Positions 21,501 to 49,200 of a DNA stretch of 64,000 bases are shown piece by piece. The DNA is from Tubiluchus corallicola (Eukaryota > Priapulida > Priapulimorpha > Priapulimorphida > Tubiluchidae). A program made the translations under genes and the position numbers. Location: assembly GCA_030141605.1 (NCBI GenBank), contig JAQGDQ010000159.1, forward strand, positions 186,001 to 250,000, read 5' to 3'. The notes below the pieces were generated by a model that made no database searches, was not told the origin of the DNA, and worked only from the letters and a program-made list of their open reading frames with translations. The first letter of the stretch is position 1. Each line of letters starts with the position of its first letter.

Positions 21501-24500
21501 TGTCATTCCTAACGTGATGTCATTTCCGCTTCCCGATTTTTCGTTTTTCGCAAGATGTCTGTGCGACCCTAAATTTGAAGAGTTGCAATGCTAACCAAAC
21601 CAAAACAAGCAAGTTTATAAAAAAATAAAGCTGTTTTGTATCAGGCAAGTCAATAGTGAATTTTGACAACAAGTGTCAGTGGATCTTTAAAGGAACATAA
21701 ATGAAGTGTTGCTTTTGAGTGATGACACTAAATCAAATTGTCCTAGCCTAATCCTGATGACCTGTCTATCAAGTTTGGCATCTTGCAGCAAACAAAGTAC
21801 CGATACATTATTTGTCTAATTTAGAAATTTAAGTTTGCAAAAGTTTTGTAATGAAATAATTGTTTCAGATCTAAATAAACTGGTGAGAACTGCATTTACA
21901 GTGGACACAGGTGTAATCAATATTACAGAATCTGGAGATGCTGTAATGTCTGCAGTGGTTTGTGGACTGGTAAATGATTCAGTTATTACACTTACAAACC
22001 ATGTCTGTACATGTGCAAAAAAATGAAAGAAAAATATACAAGCATGTTCAGAGAAAAGTAATTAAAACAATTTAAGTATTTGTAGTAACTGTGTATGTTA
22101 TATATCAAGAAACTTTTATTTTGTTATCGTGCTGTTCAAATTAAAGTTCTTAGGTTGTCATTTTTATGTGTATGGTTTTTTATCTGTAACTGTTGTGGCT
22201 TTGTTGTAAACTAAATGTCCTTTGGTGTTTAAACTGTTTGTTTACTGTGTAGCTAGGTGGAAAAATGCAAATTACAGGAAGTGAGTTCAGCAACTGGGTG
22301 CATTCAAATACACCAAGATTACTTTTAGGACTTCACAAACATCTGACTGCAAAACTCCTTGGTAGCTCTATTTCTGTAAGTAGATTATAGTTAGTTATTA
22401 TTAGATACCTTCAATTTTTAACTAACTTCCATAAAATAAAGAAATGCTGTTTCGAAATGAAGTAAAATATGAACCAAAGCCATTTCTTACAGGTTGGTCA
22501 GGCAATGCAATTTGCTGATAAGCAGCTATTGAATTTGGGTGTCTTGTGGCTGTTGTCTGTTTTCTTACCAACGATTTATACTTGTGAATCGGAAAGTGCA
22601 TCTGCAGAAAAAGAGGCAAGTGGAAGAAATAACTAAAACAAATTCATGAGTTATTTCTTCTGATACATAGAAATTTTTTATAATATTTGGTCTACCTTTC
22701 GCTTAACTGATTTGTTTGTCAGTCAAAACGTTGCCAATTTTATGTATCCAATAAAACTGACTTTTCAGTTTGCTTTATTGATTTCTCTTATGATGACCGG
22801 GTGTGCAAAGCAAAAAATTTCAATGATAGGTAGAAAATAATAAAAGGTTAAGTGAATAAATAATTAATAAATGAATAAGAAAATTAGTGGAAAATTTCTA
22901 TAATGTAGTATTAAAAAAATTACTGATGACCAAATTTAGTTGTTGATTACAAACTATTCTGATGCATTTTCACAAAACTTCTTTGACTGATAGTAAAATA
23001 CATTGTGAGACTAACTGAGACTTGACAGATGTCACAATCAATAAAAAAGTATGTTCAAAACACCCTTTTTTCTCCTCAAATTGTTTTTCATATTTCTCAG
23101 TTTTTTTGGAGGAATGAGTGTGTTTTGTGATGAGCGTGTGACTTATGCGATCTTTTTTCTGTTCAGATAAAGGTCTACAGAATCCCAAAATGGTACTTGA
23201 TATATGACAGCAACGATCAAGGCCTTAGTTTGAATAGGTAATTATCAATGTGACATGTCCTTAATGTGTGTTTAATTACTAACTATGTGCTTTTTGTTAA
23301 ATGAAATTTTTTTTGTTAAATGAAAAAATTCACATCTTGGTATGAGTCATTAGATACTAGATTATGAGTTTAAGTGATTGAGTACTTGTTTGTATATACA
23401 TACATATATTTATAATTTTTTTTTCTGATGATTGAAATGTATGTCTGTGTTTCAATCTTTTTTCAGATTTGAGCATCACTGTTTCCATTACAAAGGCCCG
23501 ACTGTGATGTTGGTGTCATTAGACGATAAATCCTTAGTGTCTTTTCTTAGTGACATGGAATGGCGGTAAGTTAAGTAGCTACATAGAGAGATATAGAGAG
23601 TCCATTGTTGTAACCTTTTAGAGTCACTATTTGGAAACCTGAAATAAAACCTCTGCAAATTAATGCTATACTACAATTCTACTTATTTCCACTTTTAGTT
23701 AGTCACTAAGTAGAGCCATAAGTCTAAACAGAAAACTGTAGCCTGGCTATTGAAAAAACAGAGATAAACTGAAAATGGTCTCTCATAATACAATTATTAA
23801 AAATGTTTTTAACTTAAACTGTCGAGAACCATTCAAAGAAAAAAATAAGTGTGTGAAAATAGCATTGTAAAAAAAGCAGAGATTGTATTGAAAATGTGTG
23901 TGGTCTGCTGTAGCATTTTATGTATTGTTTGAAATTGTTTTATATTTAGTGAATTTAGTGATATATAAGCATATGCAGTTGCACTCATCTTAAGGTACAA
24001 ATAAAAAATAAAAAGTACATAACTAAACATAATTTATGCATAAGCAATGCAAAATACACTTATTAAAAGCACAATAAACAGCAACATATATTACAAATGA
24101 CGTCATACCAATGAAAACTGAAAAGATATAACACAATCCTTATCAAGCAACTGGTGTACCTATGTGTGCAAAAGAAGATCCTCATCACCAGAAGCAGTAA
24201 TATATTTGCTACTAATCAATTCCTCATAACCAGAAGCAGTAATATATTTGCTACTAATCAATTCATAAAACGTATCTGTAGTTCTGTTAAAATACAAAGA
24301 AATAACATATTGATCAGACATATATGGCATACAGAATTTCTGACTTTCTGCCGTTAGACAAACTATTTTAGAAGACATTAATTAATATTAAATCCAACAA
24401 TGACAATAAGAAGGGTATCTGAATCCGAAGTATCCTGTAGTAAAGGTGGTGAGATCAAGTCCGTACAATAACCGTTCTCCATCTTGTTGCGTGCAGTAAC

Positions 24501-27500
24501 CACGACAGTGCTTTGAGTGAGTGCACTTTATTTTAGGACTAAAATAATTACAAAGGTAAAATTCAAATTTATTAGTTTGCATAAATCTATTAACTTCTTA
24601 ATTTCTGTGAGAAAGGGTTTTGGCATTAATAAAATGGTATTACTAGAAAAAAACGTGCATACTGTATGGGTTTTAGAGAAGCAGAATTGAAATCTGTCGC
24701 ATTATAAGCTGAATAGCTGACTAGTGACTCTGTGCATTTAGCAACCAATGTTAAGCAATGCTAGCCTAGTCAGCAAATGGATGTGGGACTGCTGGTTCAA
24801 TACTTATTTAGGGTGGTTTCATCTGCCAAACCACTCATAGATATTTATATTGTTAAGGGAAGGTGTATACGTAAGAGAAGTTCCAAACGTGGCTCGGACA
24901 TCTCTGCCAAAAGAGTATCTCATCTACGATACTCAGCCACATTATGTAATACTTGCAGTTGAAGGCTAGGATTTGCAGAATATTAAAAACACCTGCATGT
25001 ACGGCGGCAGAATAATTATGAGCTATATTTGAGAAGGCAGTTGCCATATTTGTGATAGAGTGAGAGCAAGCAAGAGAGTGAGAGAGAGAGAGAGAGAGGG
25101 AGGGAGGGAGGGAGAGAGAGAGAGAGAGAGAGAGAAGCAAACAAAGAGGGACCAAAAAGAACAGAAGAATGACAGCACAACAGTCTGTGTTCTAATAAGT
25201 ACCTGACCAAAATAGAAATATTTTGGAATTAATCACCAACACAGAGCAATTAGCAAATCACAGTTTTACTAGAAGTGTAGGTGTATCAGGTTAGTATGTA
25301 ATGAAATGACACATGATCCAGGCAAATTCATTTGGACAATAGGATGAGTAACCTAAAGTTGGAAGGCTTGTTTCAGAAAAGGTGTATAAAGGGGTTATTT
25401 CTACATGAAAAAGAATATGGAGTGCCTTAAGCTTGAGTACCTGTATATGAAGCACAGAGAGTGAATGTAAGGTTAGATGTCAGGTCATTTTTAATTTCAG
25501 AAGTTATCTAAGATTGTTTGCACAGGCACATCAGAGTTCACAACTGACACTTAATTATTCTGAAAATTGAGTTTTCATTAACCAGTCTGTATTGCGTACA
25601 TTTCATTACTTGTGGTATTTCATTAATTTTGTAAACAAATATACTGATAAAATGCTTTATGCTTTACCTTCTGCATTTGCGAATGGAAACAAGTTGTCCA
25701 GGTTTCATGAGAATGTTATGTCCATTGCAAGAACGCAAACACATGAAATTGCCTGTTTGGAAAGTTAGGAAGAACGCTGGACATCTTGGTTTTGGAGCCA
25801 AATCCAAAATGTAATCGTTCAGTGCATTAAAGCTGATTGATTCCTTTTCATCGGTTAATACACGTTCTGCTGGCTCTGTAGCTTCCATAATATACTTGGC
25901 TTTCTCTCTACATAGTCAAAATTATAGAAATTATGATGAATTTGAATTATGAACTAGTCTTGGAAGATAAAATTCTGAATGAACTTGATTTCCTTTTAGG
26001 AACTCTTAATATCATCAACAGCTGCTGTTGTTGTTAATATTTATTTGCTAACATTACTGTACCAAACTAATGTCCCTTCCTGGCAGTAGTTGCTGATAAA
26101 ACATCCTTGGAGCTGTTTTGTTCACGTATCTTCACCGAAGATGTGGGGCAGTTTTTCCTATATACACAGTCTAAATATGGGTCATCTTAGACCATTTAAA
26201 AAACTTAATATTTTTCACTTCAAGAGACAGATACTAAAGTGTCATTAATTCCACTTTGTTTGTCAGCTTCATGTATTGGGCTGCATTATTTAACATACTA
26301 GGAAAACTATCCGACATTTTAAGGAGCTTATGTATACAGTATACACACTTGCCAAAGTATCTGTCTGCACAGAGAAAAATATTGTAAACTTTTATGGGCC
26401 TCTCAGCTATTTAAGAGCATGATTTTGAGACTTGGTCACTACGCCACATGTCCTCTCGCCACCTTTTATTTATAAATTAGTTCTGGATGCAAATTTCGCA
26501 TCTTGTGTCATTATAAAAATTGTGTATTCCATCATCATTGGAACTATGTTGTTGAATGAAAATGCGAATGTCTCACCAAAGTAAACTTAAAATATGCTAC
26601 TTAAAAGTTATACGTTCTGTTTTTTGAGTTATACATATAGGAAATTATCTAAAATTGTGAAAAGTGGATTATATTTTTAATTCTTGTTATGGAAAAATTG
26701 CAAAGTTGTAACTTTAAATTGTTAAAAGCAAGCAAATTTAACATTAGAATATAGAATAATATGTTTGTGGTTTCTTATGTACATCTGTTCCTTTGCCCTG
26801 CTGTTTTATGCTATATTTTAGCTGAAACTCTGAAACAGTAATATGAATGAGTGAATCGGTCTGTTTAATTGTCTGTCCATCTATCTCCACTTTTTCTCAG
26901 CTCTGGAGCAATCTAGGATGTTGATACCTTATCCAGTAGTGGGGCATGTTCGGAGCTCAGAACTTATAAATGTTTGGGGCACTCAATGCAGATTTGAATT
27001 TTTCACTATTTTTTAAAAATTAAAAATGGAACGTTAAAGTTTTAATATATTTAAACAACGAGATTGACATTTACTGTCAGGTGTTCATGTATTTGTGAAC
27101 TTACAGCATCTCGTTTTCCACACTAATGTCACATTTGCCAAATATACACCGACTAGGTATCTTGTCTATTGGTAGTAACTCTCCCTTGTCTCCCATCAGT
27201 TCTTCTATTGTAATACACCGTAGATTATAACCATTTCCCAGTGCAAATACGACAGAGATAGTGGTTACCAACAAATACTTCATGTTTTTCTATCTGTAAA
27301 ATAACAGCTGTGTTATTTTAATTTGCTAACATTCTACAAAAATAATAACAATGAGAAATAACAAGAAATGAGAAAAATAATATGTTTTTTATATTGCAGG
27401 AGTTGTACGCCTTTAAAATTAACAAGTAATAATGTCTTACTACAGAAATTGTAATTTTTAATAGGAATTGAAAAGTAAGATGTTTTATGGCTTGTGGAAA

Positions 27501-30500
27501 GTGAATAATAAGAAACAATTTTTAGAATATTAATAAATGTGAAAAAGTGACATACTTTGCAATTTGTAGAAATGGCAATGCATTTTACATTTTGAAATAG
27601 AAATGAAGAATATGACATCCTATAGTGTGCAGAAAATTGTTAGAAATTGACTCATAGGGTCCTTTGTAGTTTGCAGTAGTTCTGTTAATACACTTAGAAC
27701 AACAACTAATGAGAAGGTGATTTATAGTTTGTAACAATTTTTAGTAAGAAGTTTATACAATACTTTTAGCAATAACATGAAATGAGAAGAAATAAGATGC
27801 TTTGTATTTTTTGATGTAGTAATACATTTATAATAGTAAGATGTAAGATGTACTGAAGAAGATGCTTTGTATTTTTTGATGTAGTAATATGTTTATAATA
27901 GTAAGATGTAAGATGTACTGAAGAAGTTGCAAAGTTTACAAAACATGAAATGTAAGATGCTTGGTAAAATTGTGTGTAGATTCTTGTAGTGTACTTAAAA
28001 TAACTAGAAGAGGTGTAATATAAGGTGTTTATAGTTGTATGTTCTTGTAATTTTCTTTATAACAAGAGATGAGAGCAAGCAAAATGCTTTGTAGTTTATA
28101 GATTTTTGTAATGCCTTTAAGAAGTCAGAAATTAATGAGCAAGATGTTTTTTTTAGTTTTTGGAAGTTGTGAAAAAGTAAAAAAGTGCTTACCGGTTTCT
28201 TACTTGTTGACTTCTGCAGTTTCTTGCTCAATGGATTGAATTAGCATCATTAATAGCTCTTTATTTATACCCGGAAAGCTGAGAGAGTCGTATTTGGGAT
28301 GCAATCAAAATGTAACACATCACTTTCAAGGTACCCTGTAATTTATTTACTACAACAGTTCTTATTGCTTAATACAATTATACAGTGATATATAATGAAA
28401 GGTGGTATCCAAGGACTAAGTTTCTGCAATGTCATTCATGTACAACCTTGCAAAATGAGGTGAATACCAGAAGGTGAAATTGAGTTGCTTTACAAGAACT
28501 TCAAAATCTAGCTGATGATTTTACAATGTTGTATTGCACCCATATGAGATATTTTTTTGCTGAACAGGTGATTGGTGAATAAGATAAGTTTTGATTCTGA
28601 ATATACTTTTTGAATTTTAATATGGCAATCATTTTTGTTTTGTCATGCATTTATGCGATTTGGATTGTTCCTTGACAAAATAGACAAATATGCAGGAGAT
28701 TAGACTACCTTTATTTAACAGGCAAGCTTTTATGTTGTTTCATACATTTAGTCAGAACTGACTGACAACAGAAGAGTTTCAGAAAGTATTAATTTGTTCT
28801 AGAAAAATGCAAAGAACAATTTATCGATATTTCAATGTTAAGCAGCAAGGTGAAGTTTTTGATGTATGTTGGATGTGGAAAATCAAATGAGTCAATTGAT
28901 TTGCGAGCTTGTTATATTGTTGGGAAAATGCAAAAGACATTTTTCTGTGTTATTCAGGGTTGCAGCGAAGGTTGTGTTTGTCTTCCAATGTCACCTTAAT
29001 TTCACTATTTGAAATTTAAAACTGATTTGTTTAACAATTAATAGATTTCTACCTGGTGTGGAGAGAAACTACACACATGTTCTTAAATAACTAACGTATT
29101 TTTAACTCTTGAGGAAAATTTTACACCCATCGTAAAAGCAATACTTTGTCCTTCATCATTGTATTTGTTGAAGGAAGGGAAATGGAATACTAAGGTGAAG
29201 TTTTTTTTTGAAGTGTAGTGTTTGCGTGAAGTCATGTATCATGAAGATACTCTTTCCTCCATATTGTCACATTTCACTTAACCTTGATGTTGAAACCTTC
29301 AATATGCAGCATTTTCAGAGATCTCCTTCAGTCTGAATTTGATGCTTTATAGCTCAGTGTTTTTGGGACTGGCAATATTTGGCAATGTTTGATCACATTT
29401 TCATTCTTGAAAAGCATTCCTATGTTACTCGTTGGAGTATATTTTGTGCTTATTTTCCTCTCATTCCTAGGCAAATGGGATCTTTAAAGCTCAATTACTT
29501 GTAATGATTGAATGTTACGCCCGCATTATGAAATTATATTCGTACAAATAGTAATAGTAGTAAAGATATTCAAACAAGTAAATCAACATGATTTTTTTAA
29601 CGAAAAGCTTTTTAAAAGCAATATGTTAGTTCCATATTTAGAAGTTATATCGATGCAAATATTAATAGCTAAAATGGTAATGAAACAAATAACCCAATTC
29701 GGTGTTGCTTCTTTTGTTTATTAACTAAAAGCTTTATCAAAGCAATTTACAAAATAAGATCTTAACACTAAATATAATTTTGAAGTTTTATAAAAATATA
29801 ATTTTTATATTTAACATAAAGAACATGAAGAACATTGACAAAATTCATTTAGACTTTTGACAAACATAGAGCATTAATAATTTTGTGTCAGATTTCATCA
29901 GATTTTAATCATTTTGAAGTATGAAATGAAGTAACAGAGTCATAACTAATTAGCTGTGCTTCATAGTAGATGCATTTTTCAGTATTAGCTATAAGAACTT
30001 TGGTACTTAAGTATGTATAAAAAATATATTACTTTTGATGCTACATGTCTAACAGTTTCCATAGTATTTTGTAGTACAGTTGATGAGAATTGCTCTACAA
30101 TCTATAGCTTTGACATAGATAACATAAACATATTGACACTGTTTCCCATAATTTAGTTAAGATTTTGTCAGTCATTTTAAAATAATGGTAATTGATGATA
30201 AAACAAAACAGTTATATCAAAAGTTGTTGCAATGCAACTCGTGGAATCTTCAATCTGCATTGAATTCACATGTTCTTTTCTAAAGATTGGCAGATTTGAT
30301 TAGTGAAAGTAAAATTACAGGATCATAGTTGATTTTTGTGCCAGTATACCAATCTGTTTTAGTACTATATGAATTACATCTAAGTCTTATGTATTACACT
30401 AAGTATTAGATACCACTTTTTATGATACATAACAATTTTAAATTTGTATGTAAAAATCAAGTGCTATTTCTATTTTTCTACTTTAGCTAAGGTTTTCTCA

Positions 30501-33500
30501 GTATATTAACCACATAACATAAATGGCTAGAAGCTGACTAATTAATATTAAATCAAACAAGGACAAAAAGAAGGATATCTGAAGCCATAGTATCCTGTCT
30601 TAAAGGTGGAAAGATCAAGTCCATACAGAAAACTTTCTCCATATTTTTGTGTGCAGGAACCTTGACAAGACTTTGGACGAATGCACGTTGCCCCTGGGCT
30701 GAAATGTGTGTAAGGGTAAAATTAAAATTGTTTGTTCTGTCATTAGATTACATAGATCTTTCTAAACTGTCTTTGCCAAAATAGCATTTTGTAAGTAAAT
30801 GGTAAGAGAAGACATGTGCATTGCACAGATTTTAGAGAAACAGAATTAAAACATATTGTGGGGTGAGTGAATAGCTGATTGGTCACTCTGTGGGTTAGTG
30901 GCACTGAGCTATTTACTGAATAGATATGTAACTGCCAAGTTCATTCATTTTGATTAGTTTTTACCTGCCAAGGAAGGACGTACAACACATCCAAACATGA
31001 CTGATGCATCTCTGCCATAATTGTTTCTCATCTTAGAAGATTAGCCCTGATGACAAGGGAGATGGTTTTAATTTCTCCACAAACTTCTACATTGTGTAAT
31101 CTTTCCCACTGAGGGCCAGATTTCAGCTTGCAAGATGAGGAAAGTATTAGAAAGCTATAATTATTATTTTTCGCTCGAAAGCACGTAAAACATCTTTGCA
31201 AATAAAAACAAGACATAATATTTCCTAAATGTTGTAGCTTTTCATATAATATGGCAGCTTTTACTTACACACAAGTGTTGCCTTTGAGGTGGCAGTTGTC
31301 TAATTTGTGAAAAAATATGGAGGAGATGTGAGAGTGAGATAGCTAGAGAGAGAGAGAGAGAAGGGAAAAGGTTTAAGAGGTGATGCAAGTGACTGATAAA
31401 GGAAAGAAGGCGAAGGAAGAAAGGAACCAAAACAAAAATATAGAAGGAAAGGAGCAGAAGATGGAGAGAAACTGGTGCTGTCAATAAAGTGGAATTCTAA
31501 GCACTATAATAAAAAGTACAACTAACTGTGCTCTGATACAGACCTACCAAAATTTAAGTTCTGTGGAATTAATCACTAACACAAAGTCGTTGTTTTCATA
31601 GAACCTGCATTGTGAGTGTAACAGACCACAAACATGTGATTGTGGCTAATTCTTTTTGATAGTAGGCTGAGAAGCAACCTGAAGTCTGGAAAAGCTGTTT
31701 ATAAAAATAAATTAAGTGGGACACTGAAAAATGGAGTGCACCAAGCTTGAATACCTGTATGTGAAACAAAGAGAGAGAGTTTGTTAGAAAACTTTGGCCT
31801 TTTTATTACAGAAGTTATCTAGGATTGAAAATAGGTTTTGTTTAAATAGCATATTGGAGTTCACAAGTGGCATTTATTTATTTATTCTGAAAAAAAGTTG
31901 AATTTTCATTCAAGTAAACAATCTATGTTGTTTACATTTCACAGACATTTATGATATTTCAATAATTTTGTAAATAAATTAATTGGTAAAATGCTTTACC
32001 TCTTGCATTTGTGAATGAAAACAAATTGTCCAGGTTTCATGAGAATTTTTTGTCCATTGCAAGAAATCAAGCACATGAAAAAATACGTTCTGAACAGCAT
32101 ATGGTACATCACACATGTTGGTCTAGGAGCCAAAATTGACATATAATCATTCACGGCATTAAAACTGATGGACTTCAGGTCTTCGTCAGCATCTGTTAAT
32201 ACTCCTTCTGCTGGGTCTCTGGCTTCCATAAATGACTCAACCATCTCTCTACAAATTCAAAAATATGTACCAGAACTACTAAATAATGTTGGAATGTGAG
32301 ATTCTGAATAAACTTAATTTCATTCTAGGATACCATAGCATAAGACAATAGGTATTGTTGTTTATTTGCTGATATTTCAGTGCATATCTGCAGAATTTTC
32401 TGAGCAATTAGTGAAGCCATGAAAGCAGTAATCATTAAATTAAATTTTACCAAGTCATTGAAATCAAGAGTTATCCCTTATTAAACCAAGATTCGAAGTC
32501 ACAGTTTGCAATACTATGAAGTACCAACACTATGCAAAGCTATATCACTGCATTATTTAATCATGTAGGGGAGAGTGGGGCGAGATGGGCTACTTAAGTT
32601 TTACAATATGTATATAACACCAGCATTAATAAATTAATAACTTAATAACCTATGTTAAGTGACAGTAAATTGATGTACTTGCTTTTGCTTTTGAAGAAAA
32701 TGAGTGACAATACTCAACTTACCCTAAGCACTGGGGGAGGTTTGGTTACCATAGCCCATCTTACCCAGTATGGTAGCCCATCTCAACCAGTGTGATAGCC
32801 CATCTCAAGCAGTGCCTAGGGTGAGTTGACTATATTAACTTTACAATGACTGTCGATTATACAAAGAACAGTGGAAATGCGAAAAAGTTATGGAACGTGT
32901 TGAATTTGACCCAGGACTAGGGGTCATTCACTTACAAGACGAGTACTATATATAACACATTAGTCTACCATACACCAGTGTTCATTACATGCCTTATTCA
33001 GTCCTTCTAGCTGGCTTCTATCTAGTTTGCTCTTTCAGAAATGAAATTAGTATACCCAGCTAACCTTTATAGGCACGAGATGGGCAACAATTCATTTCAC
33101 TCAGCGGTTCCTGTGTGAACTTTGCAATAAATGTGTGATTTTACAGATAATGCAGTTAAACTTTATTTTTTATATGTTTTAAATGTTAAGTATTTTATCG
33201 TTTAATAGAGTAATTCTGCTAAGTGTTTTACTTAAGGCTTGGAAGTGCTTTCGTTAGTAACAAGGATTTATAACCAGAAGCTCACTTGTTTTTAATGTAA
33301 AATACAGCATCAAAATTACCTGAAATTACCATTTATTTCATATTCAGTTCAATTTCAAACTTACTTCAAAGTGACACTTAAAGATGACAAAGATTATACA
33401 CGTATTGTGACATTGGAATTTAGCTACCTAACACTGCATTGCAAGAACAATATTAATTGAATAAGGGAGAGTTGGTACGTAAGCCCAACTGGCCCCGGTA

Positions 33501-36500
33501 ACCAGATGACCCACTAACCCCAGGTGCATATTTTTCAAAGTCCTCCTTCCCACAACATTTGGAGGAACTAAGCCTTTCATATCTATATTACATGCATTGC
33601 GTATGTACATAGCAATGCTTCACAATAAGTATTGTTATAAAAAGAATGCTAACATCTTAGATCAATTCGTCGAAAAATCAAGTTTGGTTATGATTTTAAC
33701 AGTTTAAACAAAATAACTTAACCGTGTGTCAGCCACCATGTCTTTCTGCGCACTGTCATATTGCTGGTACAGCGTATGTAAATGAGCAATAAGTGTCACT
33801 TTAGTCATTTATTGGAAGCAGCAAACTTGCAACTAGCCCGACTCACCCCAGTAGTCCATCTCAGTCAGGTCTCTCCTACTGTGCTCAGCAAAAGCCACAA
33901 ATAGAGTAACTGATCTAAATAAGTCCTAAATTTCCTTGTCTGTGTATAAGTCTTGAATTTAATTTGTTCTACTTAGTACCTAAACTTTGAAACTCTGACA
34001 GAAAGAACCATGTTAAAATGTGTGCTCACGTGAGTGCACATGTGCATGTGTCCTTCACTTGATTAATCATTAGGCTAATTGTTGTAAGTGAATGTCTTTC
34101 TTAATGTGTGTTCTGGATATCCTACAGAAAGATGCTGAGGTTTATAAGCCAACTCCCACTGTTGAGTGTATTCAAATAGTAGTAAATGTAGTATAGTAAT
34201 GTCACTAGTAATGGATGGGTGGTTCTGACTGTGTACCAGTAGAGTGAGATCTCGAACAAGCTTTGCCATATTTAGTCAATAGCTCAAGTGGTATGCATCA
34301 TGAAAGCACGAGTTTTGGTTTCAAATTCTGGTTAACTCACAATTTTTCAGCACCTGCTTGAATTAATGGAACCATCAGACTGATTGTTGTAACCGTGATG
34401 TCTTTATTAATGATTGTCCTGGATGACTAAGGCCCTCTCCCTCTCCAACAGTAGTTCCTGATGCAGCCTTACTGTTGTTCACATATCTTCGCTTTGAAAT
34501 TTGGGTATTCTTCGATATACCAGGTAATGCAGTCCAAGCAATTTAGAGAATCCTTCAGGGTAGGATCCCAAAGTGCCTCCAATTTCGCTTCATTTTTCAA
34601 CTTCATTAGCTGAGTTGCACAGCAGATTTATTTGGAAAAGTGAGACGTTTCAGGTGCATGAGTATCTGCTTGCACATAGAAAAATTATCAAAAACTCCTG
34701 TAAACCTCTTAACTGTAAGCACACCATTTTGAGGTCTGATCAGCTAGTCAGTGAGAGTATGTTGTGTCACTAGAACCACTTACAACCCCATTATTAAGTA
34801 AGTTGTTTGTTAAACAACTGTATAACTCATCTAGACCAACTTTCTTTAAATTAATGATTTTAGGTCATGTATTTAGAACTTGTAGAGAGCAAATTTAGCT
34901 ACAAGTACATTCATTAATTGACTGCATTCTTTTATATTTGATTTTAGAAAGTAATGAAATTATTACTATTTAAACTAATAAATGAGTGAAATTTCATGCA
35001 GTAATACGTTCATCATTTCTTATTTAGATCTGTTAGTCTTGTGGTCTGGCTAACTTTTTGTGATTGCTTTTAGGATGATTGATCTCGAATCAATGTTTAT
35101 AATCATGTTTCTATCAACAATATCTATTGTTCTAATGTTAGTCCGAAAAATCTTTGAATCTTCAAACTGAAATATTGCTTCTAGATTTTACTCAAATCTC
35201 CACAGTAGTAATGTCAAGGAGTCAACACACTCCCACATGAAGATACAGCTCAAAATGTGAAGGTAGTTTGGGAACCACATGTTTAGTGGCAGATTTAAGA
35301 GGAGTGGTTGCTGACTTAGTACATTTTACTTAAAGGTCAATTCATTACTGCTCAATATGTATAAGGAGTTGGACAACCACTCACCTATAGTAGTAGATGG
35401 AGGATAGATTTTAGGAGGGTAGCTAACAAAGTGGGTATTTTAAAGTCAAGGTCAATACAATACAATTTAGGATCGGTATGGTCTCACCATATTTAAATAT
35501 GATGCTTTAAACATATTAAGGTGAAAACATATGAGACTGGAAGGTTTTCATATACACAGACATTTTTATGTAAAGATATTTATCAGTCAGATATTTATGT
35601 AAAATTTTACAAACTTACGCTTTTGATTCTTCCACATTCACGCATTTGTCAGATGGGCACGTGGCAGGTTTCCGTAATTCTCCCTTTTTCCCCATGTATT
35701 CTTCTATCGTTAGACACGGTATTCTTGATAAGCCATTTCCCAGTACGAATAGGGCAGAGACAGTGGCTACCAACAAGCACTTCATTTTCTTATTTCTAAA
35801 AGAAAAAAGTTTGTTATTTTGAGTATTTAAAGTGTGCTAACATTACATTACATTATTGTAACGCCTTTAAAATAACAAAAAATGAGGAGTAATGTATTTT
35901 GCATTTTTACAAATTGCAAGACATTTATATTAGCAATATGATTTTGGAATTTTTAGGATGAGCAGAGAAATGTAAACGGTTTTGCTTGTACTTGTAATGC
36001 TTTTAAAACAACAAGAAACGAAATATAAGGTGTTTTACACTTATAGGCTCTTGTAATTTAGAAAATAGTACGTAAGAATAAACAAGATTAGCACTTTCTA
36101 ATTTATAGATTTTGTAATGCCTTTAGGTGGCAAAAGTTAACAAATAAGATACTTTTTTAGTTTTTGTAGTTACAGACTTGGAAGTTCTTACCTGCTTCTT
36201 GACTTCTGTAGTTCCTTGCTAAATACGTAGGCCAAGATCTCCTTATTTATACCCTGAATACTGTGGCCTTGTTTAGCATACAATCAAAATTAACTTCCAG
36301 GTACCCGTTGTTTATGACAATGCATCTTAAACCTGATACAATCATGCACTGGTAAATAAAGTCAGATACCAGAGACTAAGGTTACTGCAGTGTAAATCGA
36401 ATTCGACTTTCCAAAATGGCTTTGCAAGTGAAATTGCGGGTATTTTATAAGCACTGTAAACCTAGATGTATTATTTTATAATTTATATTGTGCCCAAATG

Positions 36501-39500
36501 AGGTTGGTTGTTTGTTAAGCATAGCAAGTCGTGTGCAGAATAATTAAACATTATTCCTGTTGTCAAAGTTCACCATTCGGAATTGGGTTAGTGGGAAATT
36601 TGCAGCCCAACGCTTTTGCAATGGCGTTTGTAACATACAATGCAAAAATACAAATCAACGTTTGCTAAGTTAAGAATCACAATGCATTACATTAAAATTG
36701 GGCTGTAATCTATGCAGTGTTTCACTTATCATTTAAGCAGTTAATGCTCAGTATTATTGTAAGTTGTGTAACAACTAATTTTTGTTAGATTTTCTTACAA
36801 ATGGCTGATCGTGAACATGTCTATGCATTCTGTTTCTTGTATTTTCACCTTCTAGAATAATTCTTTTTCGATCTGGTAATGTGTTTATTTTGCTCTCGTC
36901 CAAATAGTCCTAAAATCACTTTTCCCGAGGATTGTTTGTGCTAGTTTTCACAAAATTGGGAGCGTCCCTGTCACTAATGTCACTCAGTGTCTCTGCCTTG
37001 TAGAAAGCAAAGTTATATACTTATGACATCCTCCGCACACGAAAGATTCAGCTTTCAGACTATGTTCAGTACACCGTCTGACATAGTCAGGTCTTCAAAA
37101 AATTACAAAACTGACTCTCCCTTTTCCCTATTTTTGTTATTGTTGTAGTGATTTGAAAAATAAATGATTCGAAACGGAGTGTGTGTGTGCGTGCGTGTTT
37201 GTGTTTGCGTGGGTGGGTGGGTGCGTGCATGTGGTAACGGATGCGTCACGTATCCTACGTAGCTGTTGTGTGTGCACTCGCATGTTAAATGTGTCTTCGA
37301 TTATTTGTATTTGTGTTCATTCATAAACCTATAATGTCGATTATATTATGGATTTAAATATTGATACATTAATATAAATATAGCTAAATGCTTTTTTCAT
37401 AATTTGTTGTATAACAGGTTCACAAAAATATCTGGTCTTAGAATATCTGGTTGTAAATTGCTGGTCTTAGTGAATCTTTGTAACACTTAAGTTACTTTTT
37501 CTTGTGGAACATCCTGATTAGTACTGGTGTACACATGTGTGTAAGCATATTTTGCAAAGTATGAGTGTTCTCCCACTAGTGGTCCAACTTTTTGTTCAAA
37601 TGACATTATTTGTTGTACGAATTAAGTATCGTTTCCATTTATAAAGTTGTATTCTAGCAGCTCTTATTGTAGCAAATGTACAACAGCTAGTATAGTGAAA
37701 CACATGTAGGCGTTTTTACTTTATATATTTGCCATTTATTTACTCAAAAATAAACATAAAACAAAAAGCAAAGCAATAGTTTAAATATGCTGACTACCTT
37801 ATTAAATTAAAATCTCAGTGTCAGTTCTTACAATTGCACGACGTTTCTTAAATACTGGCTAGTTTCAAAAAACTATTATTAATTTATTATGATTATTATT
37901 ACTTTTGCTAATACATAGTAATTTTGAGATTCTAATTAAAATTTAATGTAATTCACATCCTGAAAATTTCTGTTGTCTGACTGAATACGAAGTACTATAA
38001 AACGAGCTAAATCGAAAAATTCAATTATAGGTACTCCAGTACAGTTTCGATTAATAATAACGGCCTGTTCCTAAATCCAACAAGGACAATAAGAAGGGTA
38101 TTTGAATCCATAGTATCCTGTAGTAAAGGTGGTGAGATCAAGTCCGTACAACAAACGTTCTGCATATTGTTGCCTGCAGTAGCCACCACAGTGCTTTGTG
38201 TGAATGCATTTTGTACCAGGACTGAAATAATTACAAGAATATAAATTCAAATTCTGTGCATTTCATCAGATTTTGGAGTTTTTTTTACTAGAAAAAAACT
38301 TATTTTGTTATAGTATTTTTATTTCTGTAAAACCACAACAAGATATGTTTTGTACTAGTGCAAATAATAAGAAACTTTACAGCTATTTTCTGTGACATTA
38401 AGCAAGAGTTTAAAACAAGTCCTGAAGGCAGGGAAAGAAGGAAACAGAATAAAGAAATAAAGAGAAAGGTAAGGAGTGGGATAAGATAGACAAGTGTGAT
38501 AGAAAGTTAAGGAGTAACAAAAGAGATACAAACTTACTGAAAGTAAGAAGATATTTGTTGTCATATTGTTACCGAAGCTAAGTGGATAAAATGCTTTACC
38601 TTTTACATGTGCGGATGTAGAGAGTTTGTCCAGGTTTCAGAAAGATGTTGTGCCCATTGCAAGAACGCAAGCACATGAATGATTTTGTAGTGAAAACCAG
38701 TGTGTTCATCTGACATCGTGGCCGAGGAGCTAAGTTCAAAACGTAGTCATTTACTGCATTGAAACTGACAGATTTGACATCAGTATCAGAATCTGCTGGT
38801 CCATCGTTTCTTGTAAAGGAATCGACTACTGTTCTGTGGAATTAAAAACAAAAAGTTTGTGCCAAATATTGGTAGTGGCTTTAGCAGAAATTGTTCTTGT
38901 CGAAATTATGAGGTAATTATTATATTAAATTTAGGAAGCAATTTAATTAAAGAATTGAAATACAAAAAGCATTTTTAACTAGGCGCAGATTTAAACTACT
39001 GTGTGGAGCATTGTAGGATACAGTTGCGTGGTCAATCATCAATGACAGTTAGGCCTGTTAACCATGCTTAGACACTCACTAGCTTAGGTAGATTTTTTTC
39101 TTTAATTATTTAACGTTTTTTATTCATTCGGTGTGTTTGACTTCTAGTGCTAAATACACTTCTAAACTAGTCTGGAACGCAAAGCATTAGTTTACTCGCT
39201 TACTGAGTTTTTCTGACCAACCGCGTGGATATGTTATTTAGAACACCGTTTAACCCTTGTTATGGATCCGTTTTTTCTTAAGAATTCATAATACGGAGCA
39301 ACGGTATTGTGACGTCACAATGTTAAAAACTGATCAAAACTTATTACATGAACAATGATAACAACATTATTATGATGAAAAGTTGAGTTTATTGAGTTGA
39401 TTTGCAAGCGTGTTACTCAATAATTACAATAATTACTATTAATAACATTAATTACATCAATTATCATGACTATTAATTTGCATTGCTGAAGATTAACGAT

Positions 39501-42500
39501 ACGCTAACGGGTGTTTGTTAAGTAATATAAGGTGTTGTCCTTCTAAATGTTTTACTTTGTGCTTGTAATGCTGCTAGGCTTTACTTACTTATGTGAGTCT
39601 TGCAAACTCACACATTCGTAAGATCGACAACAGTTTGGAATCTGGTCTGGAGTCAGTAATTGCCCGTTTCTCCCAATGAGCGCTTCTATTGGAACACAAC
39701 ACAGGTCCTGACAGTTTGCCAATGCAAACAGGACGGAGGCTATGGCTAGGAAAAAATACTTCATTTTGTAGATTCTGTAAATATAAGACGTTTTGTTTCA
39801 AATTAGAATGACAAATTTTCAACCTGTTATAGTACTTTGAGTTATGGCATATATATATGTAAATCTGCACTAAAGTATGCATCTATATCTGCCAAGAGGT
39901 CAAGAAAGGCACTGCTATACAAAGCTACATTTTTATGTGACATACTAGGCTTAGTATGTCAGGTGAATTCATTATGTACTTGTATGATGTGCAGATGCTT
40001 ATGCAGAAAACTGACAACACTCACAAATTTCAGATTTGAAATTGAAATCTTTGCAACAAAATTATTGTTATGTAAACTAGGTACAGAAATATTCTGTGTA
40101 ATATAATTACTATTTAACAAATTCAAATGTACCACCATTTTATTATGGATATTACGAGCTTACCTGTTATATCTTGCCCAAACTTCTATATCGTATCTAA
40201 CTTTTCCTCTTGCTTCAATCAGTGAATCTGAATATTAATTACATGTGGCGCTTAAGGTTGCATTTATACCATAGAGACCGGAAGCGTCATAAATTTGGAT
40301 GCACGATTGCAACTGAGACAACACTTTAAATCCGGGAGTATTTTGTAAACATTTTTCGGGTCGTCGTGCACATTTTGTTCTCGTTGTTTGTTAGCTAAAG
40401 CCAATGAAGTATTCAGATTGTTTAAACAAATTCAACATTAAGTTTTTATTTTTTAGTAACACATTTTGAAACAGTTGAACTGAAAGGAATGAAAATTTCA
40501 CTCATTTGAACTTGCTTTTGATTTGGACTATGGAAACTACGATAAGCTGCAAGTTACAAATGACTGTAAATTATGCGAAATTGTTGTTTTTACGTGTAAT
40601 TAAACTACCTCTCCTTGTCTATCTCGAGAGGAGCGCCTAAAAGTCGGGAGAATCCTTCCCACTTCGCCCGTCCACACATTTTTAGCAGTTTTGCTATGCA
40701 CAAAAATCCTTGTACAGAAATTAATAGGTGATGTGTTAGAACTGTAATTATATAAAATCGTCAACTTATATGAAACTTGCGTCACGACTTGTGACAGTTT
40801 ATATGTTGTCATTATGGTTGAATGTTCTGTAGTATAGTATGCACCGTTAGCCTGCGTTTACGTAAGGTGTAAGCCTTTGTTGTAAAAACTAGGTTTAATT
40901 TCCATTGACTATCTCATTTGCCGTTTCGTACAATCTGAATAATTATAGTACCCAATTTTTTTATATTTTTTAAATTTCCCAAATGTTTTCAGTATTACAC
41001 TTAACCCTTAGACGTAAAACCAATTGCACCTATTTGTAAGTTATTTGGTGTTGTTTGTACGAGTCTTGAACAGTCACGTTTTGTTTTGGCGGAATTAAGG
41101 CCAATTCGAGGAATAATAAAATGCGCTTTTAAGTTCGTGTTTGTATGTCGAAGAAGTCACGCGCACACATAGTATTTGTTTTGTTCTCGCAGGACTGCTC
41201 CATATTTCCGGTGTTTTTTCACGATTAACAAACACGCGAATGTAATTTTGGTATACGGTCGTAGAATATGTTTTGTTTGGTCATTTTAGGCATTTTACAA
41301 CAAAAATGAAATTTAAATATCGATAGTAACTGTTAAGGCGAGGTCAGTATTATAATATCCAATCTCGAATCTCTGGTAGATATTGGCTGTCACTATAAAA
41401 CTTAGTGTAGATGGAGCTTCAGATTTTGTAGATGGAGCTTCAGCTAGCTCCTTTGGGAGATTGTTCCTTTCATTAACATCTATTTTAATGGTATTAGTTG
41501 GTTTCTTTGAATAGTTTCATGTAGGCTTATTGGCCGCTTAGATTTCTAAAGATTCCTAGCCTTCCACCAGGCAGTAGAAGATCGATGCCGGGTAGAAAGC
41601 GGTACGTGTCTAATGGATCTGTTCTCTTCCTGAACTGGGTATTGAGTAAAAGTACTCTTTCTGAATATTCTGTGTCGTTTAGCCCTGAGACTAATAGCTA
41701 AGCGTAAGAAGGAGGCAGTGTGTTTTGAAGACGCACCATTAAACACACAAAAGAGAGAAAGGAAGGCAAATTAATGAACATAAATCATGCTTACTGCCTT
41801 TCCTACTTTCTTATAAGAGATTTGGTGACAAATTTCGAAACTGGATATCAAAATGTGAAATTTTGGTAGTGAACAGCGCATGCGACCTTGTTTCAATGCA
41901 ATTAACACATTTCTGCTGCCCTCTGCTGAGTTTTTCCTATTATAGCGGCCTTTCATAATAGTAGACACCGTTTACAATTACACTCTGGGTCGATCACTCA
42001 AGTCCAAATTGTAAATTGTATAAAATTAGCACAACTAAATAATTCAGCCTTTTCCTGTGGACTGTTAAGCATTTATATATTGCTTTCGAGTTTTTAAGCT
42101 GCATAGGTTCTTCCATTCATTCTTTTTTCAAGCAGTTTTTGTTATCAATGTAATGTATGCCAGTATATTACAGCTGCTACACGAGTGACCTTAAATTTTG
42201 TATAGATTGTATTGGAACACACGTCCACGCAAACTTACGAAAAGCAGTAAGAGAAGAACAAAGATTTTTCTTTCAAGTAATGTTTTTCTTCCACTTGATG
42301 TCAAGATAGGCAATGTACAGCTGAATAATACGCAGCAATTCATTAAAACTATTTGGGCTCATCCAATAATAGCCAAAAAATTTATTCGGTTACTCAGATG
42401 AGCCCGTAAGTCGTAGAGCTTATAAAATTTTGGGTAAACCCAACAATTCGGGTGTCTGTTTCGTTTTTTATAATTTCTAATACTTATTACTTATTACTCA

Positions 42501-46253: not shown

Positions 46254-49200
46254 CTAATGACAATCCTTACAGTCTGCCTCACATTCACAGCTGAAATTTG
46301 TACCTGTCTCCGCTCTGCAGTCTGGACAGCTCTGACAGTTGTGGCTGTTGCTTGTTACCACAACTGGACTTTTCCTACCACTCTGACGTTCTTTTGCACT
46401 CCTAACTGGATTGGCTTGTGCTTGACTAAACCTCTGCCTTGACTGACGGATAATTTCTTTCCTTGCCAATTCTGGAATCTTCTGCTTTATTTTTTTGTTT
46501 ACCTTATTCAGTCGACTGAGTTTAATATAGAGGCAAACAGCGATTGTAACTGAGAGCAGAAGTATCGCCATAACTGACACTAACACTGCAATAAAGGCAT
46601 CCTTTGGTACACAGTTCTGTATCGGCACTTCTTCCAAACTTCTTGGGTTGTTCTCTATTCCTATAAAAATATTTTGTTTAATTAGTTTTTACACTCTTTA
46701 GAAAAGACTATTATTTTGTATAGAAATTAAAGTACTGCTTACCTTTATCTTCACGTGCTCCGGGAATTTTTACTTTGAATTTTTGAAATATTTTTTGATC
46801 CTCAATCACTTCTTCTGCATTATCAGGTTTTGTCTCAGTATCGTTGACTGCTTCTCTTTTGCCTCTGCCCAAAACTTGGCCCTTGACAGTCTCCTTACCA
46901 GCAAACGTTGCAAAGAACTCTGAGCCTGGTGAGGGCTGAGGTGGAGCATATCCTGGATAGGGTCGATCTTCACTGCAGAAAGGCTGCACGAAATATATCA
47001 TAAAATTGTTTAGTTTCAGAACTTGAAGAAAACGTAACATAATTAATGAATCAAAATATATAAAGCGTTTTTGGCTTCAATGAATTAGCTTATTAATATC
47101 CTTGTTTAATAATTATAAGGGTTTTAAAAAGTGTCAAAATCACATAACACAGCGCAGCAATTTATTTTGATTGTTTTGTGTAACGTCATATAATATAAAT
47201 GTATTTATTGCTGTACTGTTCTCAAGTAGTTTGATATTCACTTTCTGTAGTTTTGTTTGCCATATTGATTCTGGATGTTTACCTCGTAGAGGGAGCATAC
47301 GAAGTGTCGATCATAGCTAAGATATCTCTGCCAGCTTTGTGGCTGATCTTAGTCAATGAGATGAGGTATAGTGTTGATAATGAGTGAGGTTCTGGTTTTA
47401 TCACAGCCACCCAAATTAATTTAGTAAGTTCTACCATTTATGGCTAAATTGCTAAATTGTATAAAAAGGTGCTGTTTCAGAAGCACATAATTTATAAGAA
47501 ATTAGTAATGCTATCAAGACAAATCTTCTGAATAGGGAAGGTGGTCAAAGAGGGTGAAACTAGTGTTGAATTTGGACAGAGGCGCTCCCAGACTCCTGTA
47601 GACAGAAGTACAACACAACAGTTCGAACAGCTTTCATGTTAAAATCAATTGCAATACTTGCCAGTTCTTCACGTATTATGAAAGATAATGAAGATGAATA
47701 AAATGAGTTTTAACTAACCATATCACAATGAACCAGCTAGAAAGTATTAAAATTTAAATGACTTGAAGCATACCCTGCGACATCGATCATAGCAGACCAT
47801 GCATTGACATTGTAAATATACATCTTCTGCATCGGGAAACTTGAAAACCTAGAATAGAAGTTGTAAAAATTTAATGCTAAGATTCTTAGTTTTGTTTTCA
47901 ATATACTGCCAGATATCACCAACATTTGATTCTATATTAAGGGCGTAGTTTTTTATTGTACTTTACCTTGAAATGACTGTACATGTGGGTTTCACCAGGA
48001 TTGGTGGTGTGGTCGTAGACAGGCGGTTTTATAAATTTTGTGCTTGTTGGACAACCAGATTCATCCAGTAACTCTAACTTCGACTGTCCAACACCATCGT
48101 GACCATAACATCTTGAGACAAATATGTCAAATACTTCTGCAAAAATATTTTCTTCGACTTAATGAAAGTACCATATTTTAGTGAATGTGCAAATTTTAAT
48201 AAACACTATGCAGTATTGAACAATAAGGATTTACTAATTAACTTTATTAATTGAATTATTGATTGAAGTTCCATAGAATTATCTCATAATCTAGCTTACT
48301 ACATTTATGTAGTATTAATCTATCATCTACTTGTTTAATTTATCTAAAGTAGGTACTCGTCTACCTTTTGTAACTAAATGTATAAAATCTACCTTGTAAT
48401 CTGGAATAACATGGGACTCTGGAAGACAAATATTCTTCTTCTTCCAGTTGTACTAGCATAATTCTGTCAAATGAAGAACAAACCTTGTTGATTTCGAATA
48501 CTGACGTCCATAGTGGCTGTATCTCCTAATTCTAGAATGCGTGCGTCATTAGCAAATGGATCTGTTCCTGGAACTATTCTCAAGAAACAGTTTGGTACTT
48601 CAATTAGGCCGGGACGTACAAATACACTGCTTTCTTTTTCCAAACTGAAAAGAGACATTACCAGCTGCAAAGATAGATTGTAGTGAAAATAAGCAATGAT
48701 AGTAAAGAGAAGGAAGCTATGTTTTACATCTAGTCTCTGTCTGCTCTACATATTTTTCATATTATTGGACTTTCATGATAATTCGTAAGAAACACACAAG
48801 AATGCCTGTGTAGTCTTACGAACAAGCTCTTTGTTAAAGAAGCTTACAATGAATCAAATGACTAGTGATCCTTTTAAGTGTTGTTTGTCTCTGTAATCAC
48901 AGTCTTTCATAACGGATGTTTTCAGCATTTCTGATATTCAATATTGGTATGTTTACTTACGGAACTTGGACCCCCGAGTCAACAGTTCTGGCATGGGAAC
49001 CTGTCCACATACATGAAACTGTGTAAGCTCTGTCGTGCGTCTCCATAACGCCAAAAGCTGCATCATTCATCACTACAATCGTGTTGTTGTAAAAAACTTC
49101 ATCTTGGAAATTGTTTCCCTGCAGTAAACACAGTTTTTAGCCCAGATTTTAGCCAAACCCTTTTTTCAATTGCTTATATATGTGTGTGTGTGCTTCCGGT

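What the first reader, a model, noticed from the sequence alone, without database searches (positions are those of the whole stretch)
24388..40268. Cluster of three Spaetzle/neurotrophin-like cystine-knot genes nested antisense in one intron of a MEAK7-like gene
Three hand-assembled genes encode secreted proteins of 186-189 aa. They share 12 aligned cysteines, a KC-x6-C step, a C-x-G-[YS]-C motif and the C-terminal signature YGF[RK]YPS[YF]C[PH]C (FGFRYPSYCHC in A). Spacing from the x6 pair to the terminal C-x-C matches my memory of Spaetzle cystine knots, but the N-terminal CxxIE...GELL block and the middle exon are unlike any family I can name. If the fold holds, this is a small expanded family of candidate Toll- or Trk-like receptor ligands, possibly undescribed.
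Basis: partly seen in the sequence, partly recalled or inferred. Interest (0 to 1): 0.88.

Follow-up and report, generated by a model that had tools for sequence, protein, structure and literature searches.

The report
Compact Spaetzle-like cystine-knot gene family
Three neighbouring animal genes encode small secreted proteins whose last part resembles Spaetzle, the insect ligand of the Toll receptor; they look like a cut-down relative of that ligand family lacking its usual dimer bond, and the same genome holds several more copies.

Summary
The three genes are real by sequence. Each has three coding exons on the minus strand, GT-AG phase-2 introns and an upstream TATA box, and encodes a protein of 186-189 aa with a hydrophobic start. 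The animal's own genome (343.5 Mb, unnamed) holds five more exon-3 matches, seven distinct genes in all; of the other four, I assembled three intact and one has a frameshift.

About 60 C-terminal residues match the Spaetzle profile (Pfam E 1e-5 to 6e-3 in 5 of 6 intact genes; all six below the curated cut-off). Profile-profile comparison beats 200 of 200 shuffles for Spaetzle, only barely for horseshoe-crab coagulogen, and not for neurotrophins. The six knot cysteines and the knot glutamine are invariant in 6 of 6. All six lack the cysteine that joins Spaetzle dimers, an intron splits the knot, and a short N-terminal cysteine block precedes it.

Best reading: a compact, probably monomeric or non-covalent variant of the Spaetzle/neurotrophin superfamily in a probably non-arthropod protostome, most likely an extracellular receptor ligand. 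The genome encodes LRR-TIR Toll-type receptors; the pairing is inferred. The fold is unconfirmed (AlphaFold pLDDT 40). The MEAK7 host-gene claim is not supported: the TLD exons found lie on other contigs.

The parts
27105..27283 (-). Gene A coding exon 1: hydrophobic start and N-terminal Cys block (ATG to phase-2 donor)
   Evidence: spliced ORF, GTAAGT donor
25668..25907 (-). Gene A coding exon 2: acidic linker and first knot part (C102, C116, C120, C138)
24388..24538 (-). Gene A coding exon 3: rest of the knot (C145, C151, C155, C185, C187) and stop
   Evidence: Pfam Spaetzle 17.7 bits, E 0.0057 for the whole protein
28193..28238 (-). Possible non-coding leader exon of gene A (donor end from sequence, start estimated)
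   Evidence: GTAAGC donor, resembles gene B leader; no transcript
28262..28269 (-). Gene A TATA box (TATAAATA)
   Evidence: upstream A/B piece 65% identical over 481 columns
35619..35785 (-). Gene B coding exon 1
32000..32248 (-). Gene B coding exon 2
30548..30698 (-). Gene B coding exon 3 and stop
   Evidence: Pfam Spaetzle 18.2 bits, E 0.0038 for the whole protein
36192..36220 (-). Possible non-coding leader exon of gene B (start estimated)
   Evidence: GTAAGA donor; no transcript
36244..36251 (-). Gene B TATA box (TATAAATA)
39589..39764 (-). Gene C coding exon 1
38600..38833 (-). Gene C coding exon 2
38071..38221 (-). Gene C coding exon 3 and stop
   Evidence: Pfam Spaetzle 23.1 bits, E 1.1e-4 for the whole protein
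40164..40237 (-). Possible non-coding leader exon of gene C (start estimated)
   Evidence: GTAAGC donor, no similarity to A or B found; no transcript
40261..40268 (-). Gene C TATA box (TATAAATG)

Best explanation
The genes encode a family of small secreted cystine-knot proteins of the Spaetzle/neurotrophin/coagulogen superfamily, nearest in sequence to Spaetzle. Shown: gene structure, paralogues, purifying selection, Spaetzle-type knot signature. Inferred: after signal-peptide removal the chain forms the knot ring C138-C185 and C145-C187 (A numbering; pairing carried over from the Spaetzle/NGF knot as I recall it), threaded by C102-C155, with a further clasp C120-C151, and with the exon-1 cysteine block tied to the knot domain through C116. 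Lacking the Spaetzle dimer cysteine, it acts as a monomer or non-covalent dimer. As an extracellular ligand it most likely docks on an LRR receptor of the Toll type. The conserved N-terminal block stands where Spaetzle has its prodomain. Several copies, TATA promoters and moderate purifying selection fit a diversified, inducible or tissue-specific signalling or defence factor.
For: Pfam Spaetzle in 5 of 6 intact genes at E below 0.01 (F: 0.14); the only other listed family was a toxin model in A at E 0.2. hhalign score against two Spaetzle sequences is 28.1 versus a maximum of 20.9 in 200 shuffles, 100 of which kept the cysteine columns in place; Aedes Spz1C alone gives 26.6 versus a maximum of 19.7 in 120. 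Knot spacing C-x35-C-x6-C-x9-C-x29-C-x-C (A) against Spaetzle C-x36-C-x6-C-x13-C-x30-C-x-C. Six knot Cys and C-x-Q invariant in 6 of 6. From alignment column 22 on, the Cys count is even in 6 of 6 (12; 14 in C), and G lacks C120 and C151 together. Dimer cysteine replaced by Tyr or Phe in 6 of 6; its role is given in PMC9427763 (passages). Two open LRR-TIR frames of 959 and 865 aa in the same genome.
Against: 0 of 6 reach Pfam's curated cut-off of 27 bits, and human NGF (recalled) scores 23.0 bits against the Spaetzle model, like gene C, so the Pfam score alone shows the superfamily only. PDB searches found no Spaetzle or coagulogen (no match; one unrelated chain at E 1.5). Drosophila Spaetzle alone is marginal (20.4 over 9 columns, versus 20.1 in shuffles). 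The Spaetzle proline nine residues after the first knot Cys (my mapping of Pro13 of PMC2772990) is missing in 6 of 6. The even Cys count of C and G holds only if their Cys at column 18 goes with the signal peptide; no cleavage predictor was run. The fold model is uninformative. No receptor-binding, expression or secretion data.
Confidence: 0.5

Rival explanations
1. Coagulogen-like use: the proteins share the knot but are structural or gel-forming (clot, mucus, egg or shell matrix) rather than receptor ligands, working as monomers like coagulogen.
For: Loss of the dimer cysteine and extra cysteines recall coagulogen, which does not dimerise to function (PMC2586362, passages). hhalign to two coagulogens 23.1, above 200 of 200 shuffles though barely. 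Both have N-terminal cysteines outside the knot.
Against: The best cysteine-keeping shuffle reaches 23.0, and the match spans 39 columns against 60 for Spaetzle. No Pfam Coagulin hit listed at E up to 10. BLASTP of C to coagulogen E 0.078 for the single comparison.
Confidence: 0.25
2. Convergent small cysteine-rich secreted effectors (for example antimicrobial or glandular peptides) whose C-terminus resembles Spaetzle by chance plus cysteine composition.
For: Sub-threshold Pfam scores, no PDB sequence relative, duplicating family, dN/dS up to 0.51.
Against: Similarity persists when cysteine columns are held in place and the rest is shuffled (0 of 100 reach it). Paralogues E and G also hit Spaetzle. 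Knot spacing and glutamine agree.
Confidence: 0.15
3. Duplicates of the genome's own neurotrophin gene that act through Trk.
For: A neurotrophin-like gene exists (C1744, Spaetzle 36.2 and NGF 25.1 bits).
Against: The family is no closer to that protein than shuffles (15.2 versus best shuffles 17.4 and 22.9), nor to human neurotrophins (13.5 versus 18.1 and 20.6). That gene has its knot in one open frame while the family has an intron between the second and third knot Cys.
Confidence: 0.05

Closest known systems
Spaetzle (Spz) family, Toll ligands of arthropods (Pfam PF16077; PDB 3E07, 4BV4, 7B1B)
   Same: Six knot cysteines with near-equal spacing, C-x-Q, aromatic residue before the C-x-C end, best profile match
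   Different: Dimer cysteine replaced by Tyr/Phe; six extra cysteines in A; short precursor with no conserved cleavage site that I could see by eye; Spz Pro13 absent; below Pfam cut-off
Coagulogen of horseshoe crabs (Pfam PF02035; PDB 1AOC)
   Same: Knot superfamily (coagulogen itself scores 30.6 bits on the Spaetzle model), compact precursor with N-terminal cysteines outside the knot
   Different: No Coagulin hit; similarity barely above shuffles
Neurotrophins (Pfam PF00243)
   Same: Same superfamily knot cysteines; the shared glutamine is per PMC2772990
   Different: No NGF hit, no Trp130 by my mapping, no similarity above shuffles
IL-17 cytokines (cystine-knot fold, expanded in invertebrates)
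   Same: Small secreted Cys-rich proteins (recalled)
   Different: No IL-17 family listed at E up to 10 for 6 of 6 (filters drop most weak matches)

Membership tests
Spaetzle | Pfam PF16077 above curated cut-off (27 bits) | tested here: not met
   13.2 to 26.3 bits in 6 genes
Spaetzle | Six knot cysteines in order and spacing | tested here: met
   invariant in 6 of 6; spacing of A compared with Drosophila Spaetzle
Spaetzle | Knot glutamine (C-x-Q; Gln44 of PMC2772990) | tested here: met
   6 of 6
Spaetzle | Aromatic at site 133 and no Trp at site 130 (Spz against neurotrophin marks, PMC2772990 section 15) | tested here: met
   Phe before [KR]YP in 6 of 6; no Trp at the mapped site in 6 of 6; mapping by eye
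Spaetzle | Pro13 after the first knot cysteine | tested here: not met
   no Pro nine residues after C102 in 6 of 6 (mapping by eye)
Spaetzle | Cysteine for the covalent dimer (first Cys of PSCC) | tested here: not met
   Tyr or Phe in 6 of 6; role per PMC9427763, residue mapped from chain numbers
Spaetzle | Cystine-knot fold | tested here: inconclusive
   AlphaFold of the exon 2-intron-exon 3 frame of gene C, pLDDT 40, pTM 0.25
Spaetzle | Binds and activates Toll after proteolysis | not testable with these tools
   needs protein work
Coagulogen | Pfam PF02035 | tested here: not met
   not listed at E up to 10
Neurotrophin | Pfam PF00243 and Trp130 | tested here: not met
   not listed at E up to 10; no Trp at the mapped site

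The most novel reading that the evidence does not exclude
Spaetzle-type ligands are not confined to arthropods: a compact, non-covalently assembled branch survives and has expanded in another protostome lineage, where it supplies the missing endogenous ligands of its Toll receptors, with an N-terminal disulfide-tethered block replacing the cleavable prodomain.
Probability: 0.3. Interest if true: 0.8.

Novelty: new variant of a known kind. Interest (0 to 1): 0.6.

Why it matters
Outside arthropods the extracellular protein ligands of Toll receptors are largely unknown (my general knowledge). Wilson 2009 (PMC2772990, passages) recovered no Spz genes from lophotrochozoans (Capitella, Helobdella and Lottia searched) but called it too early to conclude absence. 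A seven-gene Spaetzle-like family, in a genome where the Spaetzle model itself finds only one other kind of locus, gives concrete proteins to test as such ligands, and would show a Spaetzle-type knot without the covalent dimer.

Tried and rejected
Rejected or left open. MEAK7 host gene. My first guess of an integrin alpha for the 46-54 kb gene: it reads as ZP/cuticlin-like (CUT_N E 0.015). An early idea that the animal is an arthropod, based on that weak hit; against it, no Chitin_bind_4 match and only one kind of Spaetzle locus, but neither family rang in the control genomes, so these absences are weak. Hemocyanin beta-sandwich and annelid linker families also gave nothing (same caveat), so the phylum stays open. 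A Hox search gave a Ubx/abd-A/Lox-like homeodomain in L029 (label recalled), fitting a protostome. A visual likeness of gene C exon 1 (LIGRNGQLLTP) to the coagulogen A chain (LGRTQIVT) is not shared by A, B, E, F or G and was not counted. A ninth exon-2 match on C884 is satellite. A scan of viral contigs confirmed no relative among 40 pattern matches. The two neurotrophin-like places on C1744 have equal score; a direct comparison of the stored stretches did not match (851 of 3288 bases) and the reverse orientation was not tried. Papers also opened for passages without use in the argument: PMC8609888, PMC7441323, PMC7535936.
Full report
What is there. Three genes lie head to tail on the minus strand between 24388 and 40268. 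Each has three coding exons: a hydrophobic start (best 12-residue Kyte-Doolittle mean 2.6 to 2.8 in A, B and C) plus an N-terminal cysteine block; an acidic linker plus the first part of a cysteine-rich domain; and the C-terminal part. All six introns are GT-AG and phase 2. Proteins are 189, 188 and 186 aa. A TATAAAT box lies upstream of each, followed by a possible spliced non-coding leader; no transcript was seen. Pieces of A and B introns and promoters align at 65-77%, none of C's. Coding dN/dS (NG86) is 0.51, 0.48 and 0.33, so the frames are under purifying selection.

The family in the genome. The window's own genome is held (343.5 Mb, 2344 contigs, unnamed). Exon 3 of C gave 8 matches at E up to 10: the three window genes, C354, C2295, C104 and two on C44. 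C354 and C2295 are 100% identical over 9768 bases of the 9900 fetched, so seven distinct genes (a lower bound, since the tool scores best candidates only). Exon 2 of C found the same eight loci plus one satellite hit. I assembled E (C104, 201 aa), F (C44, 192 aa) and G (C44, 182 aa) with the same exon plan. D (C354/C2295) carries a frameshift in exon 1 relative to E and was left out of all protein counts below (n = 6: A, B, C, E, F, G).

Similarity to known families. Pfam: Spaetzle PF16077 in A (17.7 bits, E 0.0057), B (18.2, 0.0038), C (23.1, 1.1e-4), E (20.8, 5.9e-4), F (13.2, 0.14) and G (26.3, 1.2e-5); cut-off 27. The only other family listed was a scorpion-toxin model in A at E 0.2. A hand-typed consensus gave 22.0 bits, its last 61 residues 25.4. 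Yardsticks on the same model: Drosophila Spaetzle 107.5, Tachypleus coagulogen 30.6, human NGF (recalled) 23.0 bits. So the Pfam result alone places the family in the superfamily. To ask which branch is nearest I compared the six-member profile with each by hhalign and with shuffles (100 of all columns, 100 keeping cysteine columns): Spaetzle (2 sequences) 28.1 against a maximum of 20.9 in 200; coagulogen (2) 23.1 against 23.0; NGF/BDNF/NT3 13.5, inside the shuffles (maxima 18.1 and 20.6). Single sequences, 60 plus 60 shuffles: Aedes Spz1C 26.6 against 19.7; Drosophila Spaetzle 20.4, over 9 columns, against 20.1; the genome's own neurotrophin-like protein 15.2, below the best shuffles (17.4, 22.9). 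PDB searches by sequence or profile found no relative (one unrelated chain at E 1.5).

Anatomy of the knot. In A numbering the six invariant cysteines C102, C138, C145, C155, C185 and C187 match the Spaetzle knot cysteines in order and nearly in spacing. The knot glutamine (C-x-Q) is invariant. Of the three sites that PMC2772990 (passages and section 15) uses to separate Spz from neurotrophins, two agree with Spz (aromatic at 133, no Trp at 130) and one does not (Pro13), by my mapping. The first Cys of Spaetzle's PSCC, which makes the central intermolecular bond (PMC9427763, passages; I mapped its Cys-94 to this residue from the chain numbers), is Tyr or Phe in 6 of 6. Counting from alignment column 22, cysteines number 12 in A, B, E, F and G and 14 in C. 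This leaves out cysteines in the N-terminal hydrophobic part (one each in B, E and F) and one at column 18 in C and G, which I assume goes with the signal peptide; if it does not, C and G are odd. G lacks columns 120 and 151 together, which hints at a 120-151 bond (one event). C116 then has no partner in exons 2 and 3 and should bind the exon-1 block (inference). Mosquito Spz1C uses an extra Cys-59 for a second intermolecular bond, so 151 could instead be intermolecular.

Fold. The spliced protein may not be given to the structure tool here. I folded gene C exon 2, its in-frame 378-base intron (stops read as Gly) and exon 3 with exon rows of A and B. Result: pLDDT 40, pTM 0.25. Better-scored strands occur only in exon 2 (residues 41-77, block means 53 to 73); exon 3 has no strand of three or more residues. 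This neither supports nor refutes the knot.

Setting. The genome has a separate neurotrophin-like gene (C1744; Spaetzle 36.2, NGF 25.1 bits) whose knot lies in one open frame, while this family has an intron between the second and third knot Cys. It has at least four TIR matches, two in long open LRR-TIR frames (959 and 865 aa) and two broken by stops in the six-frame reading, so candidate Toll-type receptors exist. The phylum is not known. A PF16077 search that finds only one kind of locus, no Chitin_bind_4 match (no positive control) and the homeodomains seen suggest a non-arthropod protostome.

Host gene. The nested-in-MEAK7 claim is not supported. Plus-strand exon-like pieces exist upstream, with faint matches to a recalled human MEAK7, but no Pfam model hits them and the genome's TLD exons found are on other contigs.

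Literature. Ten searches of the held library gave no description of such a family outside arthropods in the rows I saw. Several listings were cut (25 of 99, 10 of 30, 12 of 3764, 12 of 324), subscription papers are mostly missing, and the spelling with an umlaut cannot be searched. [quoted passage not shown] Novelty is therefore provisional.

Verdict. A real, expanded family by sequence; superfamily membership likely (about 0.8), nearest to Spaetzle; strict Spaetzle membership not claimed because the dimer cysteine, Pro13 and the Pfam cut-off fail. Ligand function is the most likely use (about 0.5) but unproven.

Noticed in passing
window 46254-53900, minus strand: Exons reading like a ZP/cuticlin-type membrane protein (CUT_N E 0.015 in one frame).
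   Followed up: partly
window 9113-10924, minus strand: Exons reading like a DHHC palmitoyltransferase ([20 protein letters not shown]), with a possible PDZ-ligand C-terminus EISV near 2788 (labels recalled).
   Followed up: no
window 51862-52164, plus strand: Frame reading like a psq/pogo-type helix-turn-helix of a DNA transposon (label recalled).
   Followed up: no
L011 and L012 (C354:139501-149400, C2295:56101-66000): Two contigs are identical over 9768 bases and carry a family member with a frameshift in exon 1: haplotig, duplicate or assembly error.
   Followed up: partly
L001 and L002 (C1744:869475 + and 950925 -): A neurotrophin-like knot exon occurs twice, on opposite strands about 81 kb apart, with equal score.
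   Followed up: partly
L026 (C1217): A central Hox homeodomain followed by KLQLPMK rather than the Lox5 KLTGP that I expected (labels recalled).
   Followed up: no
window 32560-33900: Scattered repeats of the type ATAGCCCATCTCAACCAGTGTG inside gene B intron 1.
   Followed up: no
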